From: an uncultured Pelagibacteraceae bacterium
Lineage (GTDB): Bacteria > Pseudomonadota > Alphaproteobacteria > Pelagibacterales > Pelagibacteraceae
Assembly: GCA_902541745.1 (NCBI GenBank)
Contig: CACBRW010000004.1
Coordinates: 1-56,878 of the forward strand
Direction: 5' to 3'
Length of the DNA stretch: 56,878 nt
The notes beneath the pieces were generated by a model. It was not told where the DNA came from. It saw nothing but the letters and a program-made list of their open reading frames with translations, and searched no databases. A program made the translations under genes and the position numbers. This document shows positions 7,453 to 12,650 of the stretch, piece by piece (positions within the stretch are counted from its first letter, which is position 1; the number at the start of each line of letters is the position of its first letter).

Positions 7453-8664
7453 TTAAACCTTTTCAAAAATTAAAGCTGCATTAGTTCCACCAAAACCAAA
7501 GCTATTTGACATTACTGTGTTTAAGTTTACTCCAGTTTCAGTTTTTGAAACTATAGGATATTTTTTAGCATCATCATCCATTTCAGTAATATTTGCAGAA
7601 CCTGTAATGAAATTATTCTTCATCATTATCAAACAATAAATTGCTTCATGAACTGAAGCAGCCCCTAATGGATGGCCTGATAAAGATTTAGTTGAACTTA
7701 TTTTTGGAATATCATTCCCAAATGTTTCTTTAATAGCATTTAGTTCAGTAATATCTCCAACAGGTGTTGATGTTCCGTGAGTATTAATATAATCAATTTT
7801 ATTTTTTGTAGTTGCCATCGCCATTTTCATACATCTAACAGCGCCTTCTCCTGATGGAGCTACCATATCATATCCATCCGAAGTTGCTCCATAACCAGTT
7901 AATTCTGCGTATATTTTAGCACCCCTTGCTTTAGCATGTTCGTACTCTTCAAGTACTAATACACCTGCACCACCTGCAATTACAAATCCATCTCTAGTTT
8001 TATCATAAGCTCTAGACGCAGATTGAGGAGTATCATTATATTTTGATGATAAAGCCGTCATAGCATCAAACATTGCTGTCATCGCCCAATGAATTTCTTC
8101 ACTTCCACCTGCAAAAACAACATCCTGTTTACCCATTTGAATTAATTCCATAGAATTTCCTATGCAGTGTCCACTTGTTGCACATGCAGAACTCATTGTG
8201 TAGTTAGTTCCTTTAATTTTAAATGGTACGGCAAGTGTTGCTGAAGCAGTACTGGCCATTGTTCTTGGAACAATAAATGGTCCCATTAATTTTGGTGTCT
8301 TAGCTCTAGTTTTATCTGCTGCTAAAATTACATTTTCTATAGAAGGTCCTCCTGAACCCATCACAATTCCAGTTTTGAAATTACTTACTTCGCTTTCTTC
8401 TAATCCAGAGTCTTTAATGGCTTCTTTCATTGCGATATAATTGTAAGCTGATCCTGAACCCATAAACCTTATTGTTTTTCTATCGATATGATCTTCAAGT
8501 TTAATATTTGGTTTACCGTGAACATGGCTTTTTAAATTATGCTCTTTGTATTCTTCAGCATAAGATATTCCTGATTTTGAATTTAATAAAGATTGATGAA
8601 CTTCATCTTGATTATTTCCTAAACAAGAAACAACTCCTAAACCTGTAATAACTACTCTTCTCAT
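7453..8664 (-). CDS. fabB: 3-oxoacyl-[acyl-carrier-protein] synthase I, FabB
   Basis: Condensing enzyme needed to elongate the cis-3-decenoyl-ACP made by FabA. The Cys-His-His triad is visible: Cys161 in [10 protein letters not shown], one His in [11 protein letters not shown] and one in [12 protein letters not shown]. The C-terminal [14 protein letters not shown] loop is typical. At 403 residues it is full length. Its ATG overlaps the last base of the fabA stop codon (TAATG). The FabA partner directly upstream favours FabB over FabF. Confidence 0.95.
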
Positions 8665-9164
8665 TATTTAAATAACCCTACTTTTAAACTTTCAGCTGAA
8701 TATATTTGTTTATTATCTGCAAGAACGATTCCATTTGCAAGCCCAACAGTTGTTCCTCCAGGAGACATAATTTTTTTCATATCTATTTCATATCTTACAT
8801 TTTTTACACTCTGTAATACTTCACCTGTAAATTTCACAGTACCCACTCCTAAAGCTCTTCCTTTTCCAGGATTACCTAGCCAACCTAGAAAAAAACCTAC
8901 TAGTTGCCACATAGCATCTAAACCTAGGCACCCTGGCATAACTGGATCTTTTTTAAAATGACAATCAAAAAACCAAAGATCATCTTTAATATCTAATTCA
9001 GCCTTTAAAGAGCCTTTATTAAATGCTCCATTATTTTCATTGATTTCCGTTATTCTGTCAAACATAAGCATTGGTGGGAGTGGTAATTTTGCATTACCAG
9101 GACCAAAAAGATCACCATTCCCACAAGTTATTAGGTCATCATAGGAGTATGAGTTTTTTTTCAT
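8664..9164 (-). CDS. fabA: 3-hydroxydecanoyl-[ACP] dehydratase/isomerase, FabA
   Basis: Hot-dog-fold enzyme that dehydrates 3-hydroxydecanoyl-ACP and isomerises the double bond, starting anaerobic-type unsaturated fatty acid synthesis. The active-site His69 (WFFDCHF) and Asp83 ([12 protein letters not shown]) fall almost exactly where E. coli FabA has His70 and Asp84. The 166-residue length is normal for FabA and longer than FabZ, which supports the assignment. It is divergent from irr across 91 bases; this irr-fabA neighbourhood is common in alphaproteobacteria. Confidence 0.96.
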
Positions 9165-9233
9165 ATTCGAGCACCCTTAATACTTGATTTAATCCTAATA
9201 TAATATAATAAAACAATATATTTTTATTCATAC

Positions 9234-9250
9234 TTTAGAATAGTTATAAA
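9234..9250 (+). promoter_or_regulatory. Iron-control-element (ICE)-like palindrome upstream of irr
   Basis: TTTAGAA-TAG-TTATAAA matches the rhizobial Irr-binding ICE pattern TTTAGAA-N3-TTCTAAA at 13 of 14 defined positions, with one mismatch in the right arm. It ends five bases before the irr ATG and downstream of AT-rich -10-like sequences at 9199-9209, where a bound regulator would be expected to block transcription. That implies negative autoregulation of irr and possible influence on divergent fabA. The match is seen in the sequence; binding is inferred. Confidence 0.6.
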
Positions 9251-9255
9251 AAACA

Positions 9256-9684
9256 ATGTCAAAAAACTGCAATTTTATTGAAAAATTAAGAGAAGTTGGG
9301 CTTAGACCCACTAAGCAAAGAGTAAAAATGTGTGAAGTTTTGTATAATAGAGAAAAAACTTTTCATTTCACAATTAACGATTTGGTTAAATTGTTATCTG
9401 AGAGAATGAATCAAAAGATATCTCTAGCTACAGTTTATAACACAGTTCATGCATTTGAAAAAAAAGGATATCTAAAAGAAATTTCAATCGATAGTCATAA
9501 AAGTTATTTTGATACAAACACATCAGCACATCATCATTTTTTTGATGAAGATACGCATGAGTTGATTGATTGTGATGAGAGCGACATAGACAAAATAAAT
9601 ATTAGAAAAAACATTTCAGGAAAAAAAATAAATTCTGTTGAAGTGTTAGTTAGAGTTGCGAGTGATAATCAAACTCAAAAATAA
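9256..9684 (+). CDS. irr: Fur-family iron response regulator Irr
   Basis: DNA-binding regulator that in alphaproteobacteria senses haem/iron status rather than free iron. The winged helix is at residues 10-85 (LRPTKQRVKMCEVLY; SLATVYNTVHAFEKKGYLKE). The Irr hallmark is the SYFDTN segment followed by the His cluster HHHFF (residues 92-96), the haem-linked site of rhizobial Irr. The CxxC structural zinc motifs of Fur are absent and the 142-residue length fits Irr. The N-terminal Cys-Pro haem regulatory motif of Bradyrhizobium Irr is not present, as in many other Irr proteins. An ICE-like palindrome lies just upstream. Confidence 0.88.
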   Translation: MSKNCNFIEKLREVGLRPTKQRVKMCEVLYNREKTFHFTINDLVKLLSERMNQKISLATVYNTVHAFEKKGYLKEISIDSHKSYFDTNTSAHHHFFDEDTHELIDCDESDIDKINIRKNISGKKINSVEVLVRVASDNQTQK

Positions 9685-9713: not shown

Positions 9714-9730
9714 ATTATAATAATTCTAAA
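9714..9730 (+). promoter_or_regulatory. ICE-like palindrome upstream of the rubrerythrin promoter
   Basis: ATTATAA-TAA-TTCTAAA has a perfect right arm (TTCTAAA) and five of seven matches in the left arm of the Irr consensus TTTAGAA-N3-TTCTAAA. It ends three bases before a TTGACA -35 box, so a bound Irr could either activate by contacting polymerase or repress by overlapping its footprint. Two such palindromes within 500 bases, one in front of irr itself, make chance less likely even in AT-rich DNA. Confidence 0.5.
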
Positions 9731-9733
9731 CTA

Positions 9734-9763
9734 TTGACATACTGTTAATATGCATTATATGAT
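9734..9763 (+). promoter_or_regulatory. Sigma70-type promoter of the rubrerythrin operon
   Basis: TTGACA at 9734-9739 is followed, after an 18-base spacer, by TATGAT at 9758-9763, placing the transcription start near 9770, about 20 bases before the rubrerythrin ATG. A strong Shine-Dalgarno (AAGGAG) lies eight bases before the start codon. A perfect -35 box is uncommon in this AT-rich window, which suggests high expression. Confidence 0.6.
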
Positions 9764-9789
9764 TTGTTAATCATTAAAAAGGAGAAAAA

Positions 9790-10206
9790 ATGTCTTTAAA
9801 AGGAAGTAAAACAGAAGAAAATTTAAAAGAAGCGTTTGCTGGTGAAAGTCAAGCAAATAGAAGATATCTTTATTTCGCCCAAAAAGCTGACATAGAAGGT
9901 TACAATGATGTAGCTGCAGTTTTTAGATCAACAGCCGAAGGTGAAACTGGTCACGCACATGGTCATTTGGAGTATCTAGAGGAAGTTGGTGATCCAGGAA
10001 CTGGTATGCCAATTGGTGAAACAAAAGCAAATTTAGCTTCGGCAGTACAAGGCGAAACTCATGAGTATACTGATATGTACCCTGGTATGGCTAAAACAGC
10101 TAGAGAAGAAGGCTTTGAAGAAATTGCTGACTGGTTTGAAACTTTAGCTAAAGCTGAAAAATCACACGCTGGTAAATTTCAAAAAACTTTAGAGTCTATT
10201 AGCTAA
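9790..10206 (+). CDS. Rubrerythrin-type diiron protein (no rubredoxin domain)
   Basis: Four-helix-bundle diiron protein of the rubrerythrin/ferritin-like group, in which characterised members reduce hydrogen peroxide. Ligand motifs are visible on the helices: Glu19 (AGESQAN), Glu52-xx-His55 (GETGH), Glu89 (QGETHEYT) and Glu123-xx-His126 (AEKSH). The 138 residues end right after the bundle, so the C-terminal rubredoxin domain of classical rubrerythrin is missing and an external electron donor is needed. It has its own promoter, an upstream ICE-like site and a strong ribosome-binding site. The next two genes encode an Fe-S protein and a DUF3501 protein, a conserved proteobacterial trio. Confidence 0.9.
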
Positions 10207-10215
10207 TCAAATTTC

Positions 10216-10239
10216 TTAGTGGGCTTAGTCGCCCACTAA
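10216..10239 (+). promoter_or_regulatory. Hairpin after rubrerythrin (mRNA 3' stabiliser or attenuator)
   Basis: TTAGTGGGC (10216-10224) and GCCCACTAA (10231-10239) form a perfect 9-bp stem with a 6-base loop, ten bases after the rubrerythrin stop. It is followed by A residues rather than a T-run, so it is not a canonical intrinsic terminator in the plus direction. Its place between a small abundant-type protein gene and a larger downstream gene suggests protection of the rubrerythrin mRNA end and lower downstream expression. Confidence 0.65.
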
Positions 10240-10270
10240 AAACAATTCGAATTTCAAAAAACTTAATTAT

Positions 10271-11602
10271 ATGAGCAAAGAAGGAAGTTTAGGCGCACCT
10301 ATACGACATCCTATAGATTTTGAGCATCCTAATTTTTTAAATCCTGAAAAATTAGATGCTGAAATGAGAAGAGTGTTTGATATTTGTCATGGATGCAGAA
10401 GGTGTTTTAATCTCTGCGATTCATTTCCTAAACTATTTGACATGATTGATGAGTCTAAAAATGAAGATGTTGAAAGCTTATCTAGTGATCAATTTGCTCC
10501 TGTCGTTGATGCATGCACTTTGTGCGATATGTGTTTTATGACTAAATGCCCATATGTTCCACCTCATGATTTTGATTTGGATTTTCCACATTTAATGCTG
10601 CGATATAGAACGGCTCAAAAAAAATTAGGTAAATTACCAAGTGTACCAACACAATTAGCTCAAATAGATCGAAACGCTAAAATTGGTATTATGTTCTCAA
10701 AAATAGTTAACTGGGCATCAAATATTAAAAATAAATTAATTAGAAAAATTTTAGAACTAATTACTGGAATAGATAAAAGAGTTCAGTTACCAAAATATAA
10801 CTCAGAAACTTTTTCATATTTTTTTAAAAAAAATAAAGATAAGATAAATTATCTAACACCTTCTAAAGATAGAAAAGTAGTTATTTATTCAACTTGTTTT
10901 GTAAATTTTAATAAAAAAAATACGGGTGTTGCTGCTTTAAAAGTTTTGAAAAAAAATGGTGTAGAGGTTCAAGAAGCTTATCCTGGTTGTTGTGGGATGC
11001 CTTTTTTAGAGCAAGCAGATCTGCCAAAAGTTGTTGAACAAGCGAAAAAAGTTTCTAAAGATTTAATTGAATGGATTGATAAAGGATATAAAGTAGTAAC
11101 CTTAACAGCTAGTTGTGGATTGATGTTAAAATTCGAATGGCCCTTGTTACTACCAAACGATGAAAAAATAAAAAAATTATCTTCAAATGTTATGGATATT
11201 GATGAGTATGTTGTGGATATTGCAAACAATGAGGGATTAGCAGAAGGATTAAATGAGATTGATGGAGGAGTAACCGTGCATCATGCTTGTCATGCTAGAG
11301 CACAGAATATGGGTATCAAAGCAAGAGATATGTTAAAATTGATACCAAAGATTAAAATTGATGTAGTTGAAAGATGTGCAGGTCATGGAGGAACTTTTGG
11401 CGTAATGAAAGAAACTCATGATTTAGCAAATAAAGTTGGAAGACCTACAGCTAGACAAATAAAAACTAAAAATAATAAATATATGGCCTCTGATTGTCCT
11501 TTAGCTGGTAAACATTTAAAACAGTTAGAAGTTGATACAAACATATCTAATGATGAGGCACTACACCCTATCGAATTGGTGGCAAAAAGTTATAACTTAT
11601 GA
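10271..11602 (+). CDS. Fe-S oxidoreductase with two [4Fe-4S] sites and CCG domains (GlpC/HdrD-like)
   Basis: Predicted electron-transfer protein. Two N-terminal ferredoxin-type cluster motifs are visible: Cys39-x2-Cys-x2-Cys-x3-Cys (CHGCRRCFNLC) and Cys81-x2-Cys-x2-Cys-x4-Cys (CTLCDMCFMTKC). The C-terminal half has two CCG-like domains: the first complete (YSTCFVNF then YPGCCGMPF), the second altered (HHACHARA then CAGHGGTFG, with one Cys of the CCG pair replaced). The 443-residue length matches GlpC-like proteins. It has no membrane helix. Located between rubrerythrin and DUF3501, it is a good candidate donor for the rubredoxin-less rubrerythrin, but that is inference. The stop overlaps the next start (ATGA). 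Confidence 0.85.
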   Translation: MSKEGSLGAPIRHPIDFEHPNFLNPEKLDAEMRRVFDICHGCRRCFNLCDSFPKLFDMIDESKNEDVESLSSDQFAPVVDACTLCDMCFMTKCPYVPPHDFDLDFPHLMLRYRTAQKKLGKLPSVPTQLAQIDRNAKIGIMFSKIVNWASNIKNKLIRKILELITGIDKRVQLPKYNSETFSYFFKKNKDKINYLTPSKDRKVVIYSTCFVNFNKKNTGVAALKVLKKNGVEVQEAYPGCCGMPFLEQADLPKVVEQAKKVSKDLIEWIDKGYKVVTLTASCGLMLKFEWPLLLPNDEKIKKLSSNVMDIDEYVVDIANNEGLAEGLNEIDGGVTVHHACHARAQNMGIKARDMLKLIPKIKIDVVERCAGHGGTFGVMKETHDLANKVGRPTARQIKTKNNKYMASDCPLAGKHLKQLEVDTNISNDEALHPIELVAKSYNL

Positions 11603-12198
11603 TCATGCCTAGAGAAAAAAGAGAAATTCAAAAAGAAGACATCATGCCTTTAGATGTTTATATAGAAAAGAGACGTGAATTAAGAAAAAGTATTGTTGAT
11701 TATAAAAAAAATAGAAGAGTTGCTTTAGGGCCTTATGCTACTTTTTATTTTGAAAGTTATGAAACAATGTTAGCTCAAGTACAAGAAATGCTATACATTG
11801 AAAAAGGTGGTGATGAGCAACTTCAGGATGAGTTAACTGCGTACAATCCTTTAATACCTAACGGCAAAGAACTAACAGCAACTTTAATGTTTGAAATAGA
11901 TAATCCTATATCAAGGGCTGCGTTTCTTGGAAAAGTTGGTGGAATAGAAGAAACAGTATTTATGCAAATAAATGGTGAGAAAATTAAAGCAGATCCTGAA
12001 GAAGATGTTGATAGAACTTCTTCTGAAGGAAAAGCTTCATCAGTACAGTTTATTCATTTTAATTTTACTGATGATCAAATAGAAAAATTTCAATCTAATA
12101 GCTCAGAAATTGAGCTTGGAATTGACCATAAAGAGTATTCTCATAGCACAAAATTATCTAAAGAAAATATAGCCTCTTTATCTACTGATTTTAGTTAA
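11599..12198 (+). CDS. DUF3501 family protein
   Basis: Conserved protein of unknown function, recognised from its N-terminal REIQKEDIMPLDVYIEKR pattern and from its place after rubrerythrin and a CCG Fe-S protein. It is 199 residues, soluble, acidic toward the C-terminus, with no cysteine-rich cluster motif or membrane segment. The start overlaps the upstream stop (ATGA); an alternative ATG two codons later at 11605 gives MPREKREIQ. It ends in a tail-to-tail overlap with the minus-strand SH3 gene. Linkage suggests a role in peroxide or iron stress with the rubrerythrin, but no activity can be assigned. Confidence 0.82.
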   Translation: MIMPREKREIQKEDIMPLDVYIEKRRELRKSIVDYKKNRRVALGPYATFYFESYETMLAQVQEMLYIEKGGDEQLQDELTAYNPLIPNGKELTATLMFEIDNPISRAAFLGKVGGIEETVFMQINGEKIKADPEEDVDRTSSEGKASSVQFIHFNFTDDQIEKFQSNSSEIELGIDHKEYSHSTKLSKENIASLSTDFS

Positions 12199-12650
12199 TT
12201 TAGTCCCCAAATATTATCTGTTTTAATCCAACCTTCAAATTCTTCTGATGTAATTTTACACCAATTTTGTTCACATTTTTCTACAATTAATAATCTTCCC
12301 TCTTTTATTTGAGCAATTGGTTTAGCGAAAGATGTGGGTTTTTTAAATAAAACTTTATCTTTCATAGCTATTACAGAATTATTTTTTTTTAATTGAGAGA
12401 TATGAATCCACCCACTGTTATTTTTTAAATCTATAATTCGCCTGAAATTCTCTTTTTTATCGATTTGTTTTAATGGAAGATTTATTTTTTTATAAACGTA
12501 TTTAATATCAGATTCAAAACTTGGTCCGTAACGAACGTTTACTTTATTTTTTTTAAGAGAGACAAAAATTTCATTAGCAAACGAAATGTGAGTAAAAAAT
12601 AACAAAAAAAAAACTATATAAATTTTTTTTATTATTAGTTGCATAAGCAT
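12195..12650 (-). CDS. Exported bacterial SH3-domain protein
   Basis: Predicted periplasmic protein with a cleavable signal peptide (hydrophobic stretch about residues 5-25, ending SFANE) followed by two bacterial SH3-like repeats. The first has the typical VNVRYGPSFESDI and SGWIHISQL pattern, the second ends WCKITSEEFEGWIKTDNIWG. At 151 residues it matches the small SH3 (DUF1058-type) proteins of alphaproteobacteria, thought to bind peptidoglycan or peptides. The start overlaps the end of the MoeB/ThiF-like gene by 16 bases; a second ATG at 12644 is also possible. It is the last gene of the minus cluster. Confidence 0.82.
   Translation of the reverse strand: MLMQLIIKKIYIVFFLLFFTHISFANEIFVSLKKNKVNVRYGPSFESDIKYVYKKINLPLKQIDKKENFRRIIDLKNNSGWIHISQLKKNNSVIAMKDKVLFKKPTSFAKPIAQIKEGRLLIVEKCEQNWCKITSEEFEGWIKTDNIWGLN

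What the first reader, a model, noticed from the sequence alone, without database searches (positions are those of the whole stretch)
9714..12198. Rubrerythrin / two-cluster CCG protein / DUF3501 operon: an uncharacterised redox module
Three adjacent genes encode a rubredoxin-less diiron rubrerythrin, a soluble protein with two [4Fe-4S] motifs and two CCG-type domains, and a DUF3501 protein. The rubrerythrin needs an electron donor, and the Fe-S protein is the obvious candidate; DUF3501 has no known activity. The second CCG domain has CAGHGG in place of a CCG-type pair, so its metal or disulfide chemistry may be altered. The trio is a recurring gene neighbourhood, but I know of no biochemical description.
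Basis: partly seen in the sequence, partly recalled or inferred. Interest (0 to 1): 0.75.

Follow-up and report, generated by a model that had tools for sequence, protein, structure and literature searches.

The report
Exchangeable peroxidase cassette in SAR11 bacteria
This marine SAR11 bacterium carries a known three-gene rubrerythrin module, and it sits in a single chromosomal slot, beside an iron/haem regulator, where related SAR11 strains instead carry catalase-peroxidase or peroxiredoxin, which suggests that the module's job is to destroy hydrogen peroxide.

Summary
The three genes are real. The neighbourhood is already in print as rubrerythrin (RBR) / RFO / DUF3501 (Cardenas 2016), with RFO proposed as electron donor, so the trio itself is not new. 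CAGHGG in RFO is a family trait, not an oddity of this window. What the surroundings add I did not find in print. (1) The Fur-family gene upstream resembles the haem/iron regulator Irr. Irr-box (ICE) sequences precede rbr here, rbr or katG in 61 of 61 SAR11 loci scored, and rbr in most of 38 other alphaproteobacterial loci. (2) In Pelagibacteraceae the trio sits between irr and a convergent SH3/thiF gene pair; at that site other genomes carry katG, or rarely a peroxiredoxin. Of 147 genomes 23 have the trio, 95 match katG, none has both. A flanking-gene tree forces at least 8 switches. One katG locus keeps a leftover DUF3501. Exclusivity is not general: among 337 Alphaproteobacteria 68 have both, about as chance gives, and empty slots exist. 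Best explanation: an Irr-linked, haem-free H2O2-reducing module interchangeable with KatG. The peroxidase role is inferred from genetics; RFO as donor and DUF3501 as adaptor are untested.

The parts
8664..9164 (-). fabA, left border of the exchangeable slot (divergent from irr; fabB and fabI, named by eye, follow)
   Evidence: PF07977; fabB and fabA at this place in 61 of 61 SAR11 loci with trio or katG
9234..9250 (+). ICE-like (Irr) box in front of irr, downstream of a -10-like TATAAT: autoregulation position
   Evidence: 2 mismatches to TTTAGAATNATTCTAAA; similar boxes seen by eye upstream of irr in most of 20 other trio loci; promoter-like hit 9177-9204
9256..9684 (+). irr, haem/iron-responsive Fur-family regulator
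   Evidence: IrrA NF045678 133.9 bits (cut-off 150) and Irr NF045677 121.4 bits (cut-off 170) as best models; PF01475; in front of rbr in 22 of 22 rbr genomes of the family
9714..9730 (+). ICE1 box, directly upstream of the rbr -35
   Evidence: 2 mismatches to the ICE pattern, 12 of 14 fixed positions, reached in 3 of 200 shuffles of this gap; the only exact match to TTTAGAAYNATTATAA in the held genome G000
9734..9763 (+). rbr promoter: TTGACA, 18 nt, TATGAT
   Evidence: 11 of 12; the region as a whole has no excess of promoter-like hits. Of 21 trio loci 17 have a box of >=11/14 upstream of the -35 and 14 have one downstream of it; in the window only the upstream one
9790..10206 (+). rbr, rubredoxin-less 'aerobic-type' rubrerythrin (diiron)
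   Evidence: PF02915; PDB 9onm, 4di0, 8fuh at E 2e-71 or better; E19, E52, H55, E89, E92, E123, H126 in the >=95% conserved set (ligand roles recalled)
10216..10239 (+). hairpin between rbr and RFO (9-bp stem), perhaps lets rbr mRNA exceed RFO-DUF3501 mRNA
   Evidence: -15.1 kcal/mol, z -4.83, 0 of 200 shuffles as good; a stem-loop in the single-sequence folds of this gap in 21 of 21 trio loci; in 12 aligned, 4 of 8 consensus pairs show compensatory change but others are broken in some sequences and the covariation term is only 0.1
10271..11602 (+). RFO, GlpC-like protein with 2 x [4Fe-4S] motifs and 2 CCG domains
   Evidence: PF02754; GlpC model 201.7 bits; 15 Cys kept in 44-45 of 45 sequences
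11599..12198 (+). DUF3501, Cys-free beta-sandwich protein
   Evidence: PF12007; PDB 3fjv E 9.3e-29; model pLDDT 83.5, matches 3fjv at Z 22.9
12195..12650 (-). SH3-domain gene, right border of the slot (thiF, then dut and coaBC, named by eye, follow)
   Evidence: PF06347; SH3 and thiF at this place in 61 of 61 loci; homology between a katG and a trio allele resumes at its 3' end

Best explanation
The trio is an H2O2-reducing module. Rbr reduces H2O2 to water at a non-haem diiron site. RFO, a soluble GlpC-like Fe-S protein, re-reduces Rbr. DUF3501 is a Cys-free adaptor or assembly partner that docks RFO and Rbr. Transcription is controlled by the neighbouring haem sensor Irr through ICE boxes at the rbr promoter, and a hairpin after rbr keeps Rbr in excess over RFO and DUF3501. 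In Pelagibacteraceae the block occupies a single slot (fabA < irr > [cassette] < SH3-thiF) and is exchanged with katG, or more rarely with a peroxiredoxin, while flanks and promoter boxes stay. Shown by sequence: the linkage, the boxes, the exchange and its borders. Inferred: peroxidase function, the RFO-to-Rbr electron path, the DUF3501 role, the hairpin's effect, and Irr binding and its sign.
For: Slot: of 147 family genomes 23 have the trio, 95 match katG (85 over the cut-off, the rest mostly fragments), 0 both. katG lies 85-194 bp behind irr in 64 of 64 katG genomes with a strong irr hit; rbr lies 79-119 bp behind irr in 22 of 22. The same flanking genes are present in 21 trio and 40 katG loci. 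Second set, 80 named loci, 1 with irr DNA identical to the first set: 44 trio (3 cut by contig ends), 34 katG, 1 Redoxin-family peroxiredoxin with two ICE-like boxes seen by eye, 1 cut behind irr. Three more genomes have a Prx in the slot without irr. At least 8 switches are forced by well-supported branches of a flanking-gene tree, 10-11 in bootstraps. L238 holds a katG cassette plus an intact leftover DUF3501, 88% identical to the window's. Homology between a katG and a trio allele stops near the irr 3' end and resumes at the SH3 3' end. Irr: an Irr-like gene in 33 of 40 alphaproteobacterial trio clusters; best ICE score unmatched by 100 shuffles in 29 of 38; box of >=11 of 14 in 61 of 61 SAR11 irr-rbr or irr-katG gaps, unmatched by 200 shuffles in 35 and matched by at most 2 in 53. 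Ferriperoxin, a rubredoxin-less relative, is an NADPH-FNR-dependent peroxidase whose disruptant cannot grow aerobically (PMC3317640, abstract and passages). Loss of Irr raises H2O2 resistance in Rhodobacter sphaeroides, where both Irr-box genes are described as oxidative-stress genes (PMC3413700, passages).
Against: No biochemistry on this trio. Exclusivity is not general: among 337 Alphaproteobacteria DUF3501 170, katG 139, both 68 (p 0.66), and two genomes hold katG inside the same Irr cluster (L266, L267). The slot is empty in 8 of 13 fabA loci read in genomes with neither system. 13 loci of the phylum-wide draw, 6 of them from this class, show no irr. The window's own box is not exceptional for its AT-rich gap (3 of 200 shuffles). 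rbr rose 1.57-fold under iron limitation in Ca. P. ubique (PMC2864753), while PMC3413700 says Irr represses under iron depletion in all species studied: this does not fit simple repression, and it suits an iron role too. That like replaces like is an inference. The RFO model was too poor to use (pLDDT 43.7).
Confidence: 0.73

Rival explanations
1. The trio is an iron-handling (ferroxidase/iron-sequestering) module: Rbr oxidises and holds Fe(II), RFO re-reduces it for release, Irr regulates it as an iron gene.
For: Irr is an iron/haem regulator; SAR11_0399 rbr annotated 'hyp. ferroxidase' and up 1.57-fold (p 0.025) under iron limitation, SAR11_0401 protein up 2.21-fold (PMC2864753; that 0401 is DUF3501 is inferred from gene numbering). 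mbfA and bfr, iron genes, are known Irr targets (PMC3413700; PMC7762939).
Against: The genes that take its place in the slot are katG and peroxiredoxin, not ferritins. Ferriperoxin, a rubredoxin-less relative, is a peroxidase.
Confidence: 0.15
2. Rbr is the peroxidase but RFO is not its electron donor: Rbr is reduced by FNR/ferredoxin, and RFO with DUF3501 repairs or metallates the diiron site, or reduces another target.
For: H. thermophilus Fpx is reduced by NADPH/FNR in vitro. Thermoproteales have RBR and DUF3501 without RFO (PMC5114695). The second CCG domain of RFO lacks two of the Cys of GlpC. DUF3501 has no Cys in the window and two conserved His (46 and 47 of 47).
Against: RFO and DUF3501 are kept or lost together in all 23 trio genomes of the family, with rbr in 22 and cut off in one. 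RFO is nearest to GlpC, an electron-transfer subunit.
Confidence: 0.3
3. The katG/trio alternation is passive: the slot is a neutral insertion site and the two cassettes are linked only by recombination in flanks, not by shared function.
For: Flanks are homologous; empty slots exist in 8 of 13 loci read in genomes with neither system.
Against: Every occupied slot that I could read to its end holds katG, a peroxiredoxin or the trio; the trio comes with irr in 22 of 22, and ICE-like boxes are kept in 61 of 61 trio and katG loci.
Confidence: 0.1

Closest known systems
'Aerobic-type' rubrerythrin system RBR-RFO-DUF3501 (Cardenas, Quatrini and Holmes 2016, PMC5114695)
   Same: Same three families in one cluster; rubredoxin-less Rbr; RFO proposed to replace the rubredoxin domain as electron carrier; co-occurrence of all three in 185 genomes, RBR+DUF3501 only in 25, of 4461 examined.
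   Different: A term search of that paper found neither Irr nor Pelagibacter. The Irr boxes and the exchange with katG/Prx are added here.
Mitochondrial aerobic-type rubrerythrin trio of Andalucia godoyi and other protists (PMC7050145)
   Same: All three proteins; RFO and DUF3501 of alphaproteobacterial origin by the authors' trees.
   Different: Genes not physically linked in Andalucia; no regulator named in the passages seen.
Ferriperoxin (Fpx) of Hydrogenobacter thermophilus (PMC3317640)
   Same: Single-domain Rbr; peroxidase for H2O2 and organic hydroperoxides.
   Different: Reduced by NADPH-FNR in vitro; the RFO gene lies apart in that organism.
Rubrerythrin of Ca. Pelagibacter ubique (SAR11_0399; PMC2864753, PMC5069961)
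   Same: Presumably the same gene; called a putative ferroxidase in 2010 and a peroxidase in 2016.
   Different: Passages seen do not mention RFO, DUF3501, Irr boxes or katG exchange.
GlpC, subunit C of anaerobic glycerol-3-phosphate dehydrogenase
   Same: Two ferredoxin-like Cys motifs plus two CCG domains; 95 of 388 aligned residues identical to E. coli GlpC.
   Different: No GlpA- or GlpB-like gene beside it as far as the neighbouring ORFs were read by eye; second CCG domain has lost two Cys and has conserved His.
Irr regulon / ICE boxes of Rhizobiales and Rhodobacter
   Same: Irr-family regulator and ICE-like palindromes at the promoter.
   Different: Here Irr sits in a cluster with its presumed target; the known Irr-controlled rubrerythrin-like protein MbfA is a different, longer protein (19.1 bits against a cut-off of 450).
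KatG catalase-peroxidase of SAR11 and the Black Queen argument (PMC3033426, PMC12636525, PMC11366302)
   Same: Same slot, similar boxes, presumed same task.
   Different: Haem enzyme. PMC3033426 says P. ubique lacks catalase homologues; PMC12636525 reports katG in most offshore genera and a term search found no rubrerythrin in it; PMC11366302 reports rubrerythrin in 4 of 28 SAR11 members and KatG in the clade, without stating exclusion in the passages seen.

Membership tests
Aerobic-type RBR-RFO-DUF3501 system | Rubrerythrin without rubredoxin domain | tested here: met
   138 aa, no Cys; PF02915 over cut-off
Aerobic-type RBR-RFO-DUF3501 system | RFO (CCG domains, GlpC relative) and DUF3501 adjacent | tested here: met
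   contiguous in 38 of 40 and 13 of 13 other loci
Aerobic-type RBR-RFO-DUF3501 system | RFO passes electrons to Rbr | not testable with these tools
   proposed in PMC5114695; no assay found in the searches made
H2O2 peroxidase module | Peroxidase activity | not testable with these tools
   genetic exchange with katG and Prx is indirect
Irr regulator | Score over the curated Irr/IrrA cut-off | tested here: inconclusive
   Window protein 133.9 bits, cut-off 150: best model, under cut-off. 8 of 8 tested relatives from other alphaproteobacterial trio clusters are over the IrrA cut-off
Irr regulator | HXH haem motif | tested here: met
   H92-H93-H94 invariant in 10 of 10 aligned SAR11 Irr; motif description from PMC7762939
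Irr regulator | Binds ICE boxes / haem | not testable with these tools
   boxes present; binding not tested
GlpC (anaerobic G3P dehydrogenase subunit C) | Score over the curated cut-off | tested here: not met
   201.7 of 278 bits, and 128.8 of 279.9 bits
GlpC (anaerobic G3P dehydrogenase subunit C) | Two full CCG motifs including final CxxC in CCG2 | tested here: not met
   DCETC in GlpC is DCPLAG here; CCGIAG is CAGHGG
MbfA (Irr-controlled iron exporter with rubrerythrin domain) | Score over the curated cut-off | tested here: not met
   19.1 of 450 bits

The most novel reading that the evidence does not exclude
SAR11 has a single-occupancy peroxidase slot under Irr control. Whole cassettes (haem enzyme KatG; diiron Rbr-RFO-DUF3501; thiol Prx) are swapped there by homologous recombination in the flanks, so that a lineage chooses which metal or cofactor it spends on H2O2 defence. 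SAR11 strains counted as catalase-less beneficiaries of helper microbes then carry their own private, non-leaky peroxide sink.
Probability: 0.58. Interest if true: 0.78.

Novelty: new variant of a known kind. Interest (0 to 1): 0.62.

Why it matters
It turns an orphan gene neighbourhood into a testable peroxide-defence system, because its genetic equivalents are KatG and Prx. It names a likely regulator and its sites. It also questions a premise in the literature, that Pelagibacter ubique lacks H2O2 defence (PMC3033426): SAR11 genomes of the type without katG carry the trio at the very katG site. One paper had already called P. ubique rbr a peroxidase (PMC5069961), but not as a stand-in for katG in the passages I saw. 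It may help explain the coastal/offshore split of katG reported in 2025 (PMC12636525).

Tried and rejected
The four weak DUF3501 hits (L024-L027, 19-25 bits) are OmpH/Skp-like proteins beside a BamA-like gene and lpxD (read by eye): taken as chance matches and dropped. 'CAGHGG is an unusual change': rejected, it is a family trait; the final CPLA stretch is not kept in 9 of the 13 phylum-draw sequences. A general law that trio and katG exclude each other: rejected at class level. 'The slot is never empty': rejected. DUF3501 as a redox carrier: unlikely, the window protein has no Cys; its model clearly matches only 3fjv (Z 22.9), then Ig-like sandwiches, CrdA among them, at Z 7.0 or less, which says nothing on function. 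RFO structure: model too poor, not searched further. The pattern scan for ICE boxes over nine genomes gave 90 hits in all against 104 for its reversed control, so I make no claim on a wider regulon; of its 13 exact hits 11 lie at the irr locus. Rodionov 2006, a reconstruction of Irr regulons (recalled), is not held, so a prediction of this box there cannot be excluded. A three-protein complex could not be modelled with the tool.

Literature scope: that the katG exchange and the Irr linkage are not in print rests on the searches, over open-licence PMC papers only. Passages found by term, not whole texts, were seen in PMC5114695 (abstract too), PMC7050145, PMC3597751, PMC7465337, PMC2864753, PMC5069961, PMC8707726, PMC3317640, PMC11366302, PMC3033426, PMC12636525, PMC6775983, PMC3413700 and PMC7762939. 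Other papers were seen as search listings only.
Full report
WHAT IS THERE. The window holds, on the + strand, irr (9256-9684), rbr (9790-10206), RFO (10271-11602) and DUF3501 (11599-12198), flanked by divergent fabA on the left and a convergent SH3-domain gene with thiF, dut and coaBC on the right (dut and coaBC named by eye). Rbr has no Cys and thus no rubredoxin domain; solved rubrerythrins of the same length class match at E 2e-71 or better. RFO scores best with GlpC but under its cut-off. DUF3501 has one solved relative, 3fjv, of unknown function.

The trio as a neighbourhood is published: Cardenas and co-workers named RFO in 2016, counted 185 genomes with all three among 4461, and proposed that RFO supplies electrons (PMC5114695, abstract and passages). 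It also occurs in protist mitochondria (PMC7050145, passages). The CAGHGG motif is real but standard: Cys369 and His372 are each kept in 44 of 45 RFO sequences (window, 39 from other alphaproteobacterial loci, 5 SAR11), and CxGHxG occurs in 13 of 13 from a phylum-wide draw. Compared with E. coli GlpC, RFO keeps the first CCG domain and loses two Cys of the second, so a canonical five-Cys non-cubane cluster (description recalled) is unlikely there; three Cys plus conserved His remain.

A SLOT FOR PEROXIDASES. In 147 genomes of the family, full-length DUF3501 occurs in 23, RFO orthologues (over 400 bits) in the same 23, and rbr in 22, the exception being G038, whose contig ends within RFO. katG matches occur in 95 (85 over the cut-off, the rest mostly fragments), with no overlap with the 23 (Fisher p 8e-13, not corrected for kinship). 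All 64 katG genomes with a strong irr hit have katG 85-194 bp behind irr; all 22 rbr genomes have rbr 79-119 bp behind irr; one more genome with irr is cut by a contig end. In the window's genus the 27 genomes divide into 11 trio and 16 katG, one of these (G109) by a broken fragment only. Flanking genes agree in 21 trio loci (window included) and 40 katG loci. Of 31 katG genomes without strong irr I looked at 20: in 8 katG is in the slot without irr, in 12 it lies elsewhere or the contig is too short to tell. Of 29 genomes with neither system, 13 fabA loci could be found: 3 have a peroxiredoxin in the slot without irr, 8 are empty, 2 are cut.

A SECOND SET. They divide into 44 trio loci (41 whole, 3 cut by contig ends), 34 katG loci, one locus cut 57 bp behind irr, and L223, where a Redoxin-family protein stands behind irr with two ICE-like boxes, seen by eye, in its promoter. 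L238 has a katG cassette followed by an intact DUF3501, 88% identical to the window's: a scar of a swap that removed rbr and RFO only.

REPEATED SWITCHING. On a FabB+FabA tree of 62 loci the trio/katG label changes at least 8 times on starred branches, 10-11 times in bootstraps; shuffled labels average 17.5, so the label is clustered yet switched often. A quick tree of 138 loci gives 20 changes on FabB+FabA, 19 on ThiF (133 loci), and 9 on Irr, which suggests that irr tends to travel with its cassette. Between one katG allele and a close trio allele, homology runs to about 20 nt before the irr end and resumes at the SH3 3' end.

IRR CONTROL. The window has ICE-like boxes in front of irr and rbr. 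In 61 of 61 SAR11 loci the short gap between irr and rbr or katG holds at least one box of 11 or more of 14 fixed positions; 19 hold two or more. Against 200 dinucleotide shuffles of each gap the best box is unmatched in 35, matched at most twice in 53; the window's own is matched 3 times, the worst locus 24 times. In 40 further alphaproteobacterial trio loci that I chose from the listing (33 family codes), the trio is contiguous in 38 and an Irr-like gene lies in the cluster in 33; 8 of 8 tested are over the IrrA cut-off. In 38 scored upstream regions of 260 bp, some of which reach into irr, the best ICE match is unmatched by 100 shuffles in 29 and matched by at most 3 in 34. Against this, 13 loci from a phylum-wide draw (6 of this class, 7 of other classes) have the trio and no irr. 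From the literature: Irr can repress or activate by box position and is degraded with haem and reactive oxygen in Bradyrhizobium (PMC7762939, PMC3413700, passages). In the window the one surviving box is upstream of the -35, an activator-like place, which could fit the mild rise of rbr under iron limitation in Ca. P. ubique (1.57-fold, PMC2864753); but PMC3413700 states that Irr represses under iron depletion in all species studied. In katG promoters a box lies downstream of the -35, over the spacer and -10 region, in 38 of 40 loci (L146 has only an upstream box, L162 no -35 call); in trio promoters 17 of 21 have an upstream and 14 of 21 a downstream box. So the sign of control may differ between alleles; this is inference.

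OTHER FEATURES. A hairpin lies between rbr and RFO in the folds of 21 of 21 trio loci; covariation support in 12 aligned gaps is mixed. In L267 the RFO frame runs into DUF3501 after its first CCG domain, next to an intact katG. Rubrerythrin protein of Pelagibacterales was seen day and night in a metaproteome (PMC8707726).

LIMITS. Among 337 Alphaproteobacteria, DUF3501 is in 170, katG in 139, both in 68, close to expectation, so exclusivity belongs to this streamlined family. L266 and L267 hold katG and trio in one Irr cluster, which suggests that both can stand side by side under one regulator. Nothing here measures activity.

VERDICT. The trio is a known kind. Its place in an exchangeable, Irr-linked peroxidase slot was not found in print in my searches, and is strong indirect evidence that it is an H2O2-reducing system.

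Noticed in passing
L131-L169, between katG and the SH3 gene: Many katG cassettes carry one or two extra small genes: an ~80 aa membrane-like protein (looks like DUF2061, by eye) and a ~200 aa protein beginning like F-DFYEVPNLKFDI; function unknown.
   Followed up: no
L267:7826-9481: RFO frame joined to DUF3501 after CCG1, lacking the second CCG domain, in a genome with katG between irr and rbr: a fusion or a decaying trio.
   Followed up: partly
L238:10919-11512: Intact orphan DUF3501 (88% identical to the window's) behind a katG cassette, a swap scar; whether it is still expressed is unknown.
   Followed up: partly
L329, L330, L332, L336-L340: fabA directly beside the SH3 gene with no insert and no irr: empty slots in other genera of the family (codes g5, g7, g9, g12).
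   Followed up: partly
L309, L310 (G009, G022): In genus g9 a Prx-like gene lies about 1.2 kb in front of katG, away from the fabA-SH3 slot.
   Followed up: no
L064:6186-7515: RFO frame broken by stops in G020 (63% complete genome); assembly error or decay, not resolved.
   Followed up: no
L056, L057, L058 between rbr and RFO: The rbr-RFO gap is about 165 nt here, against 45-70 nt in most other trio loci, with a possible short ORF of about 30 codons after the hairpin (by eye).
   Followed up: no
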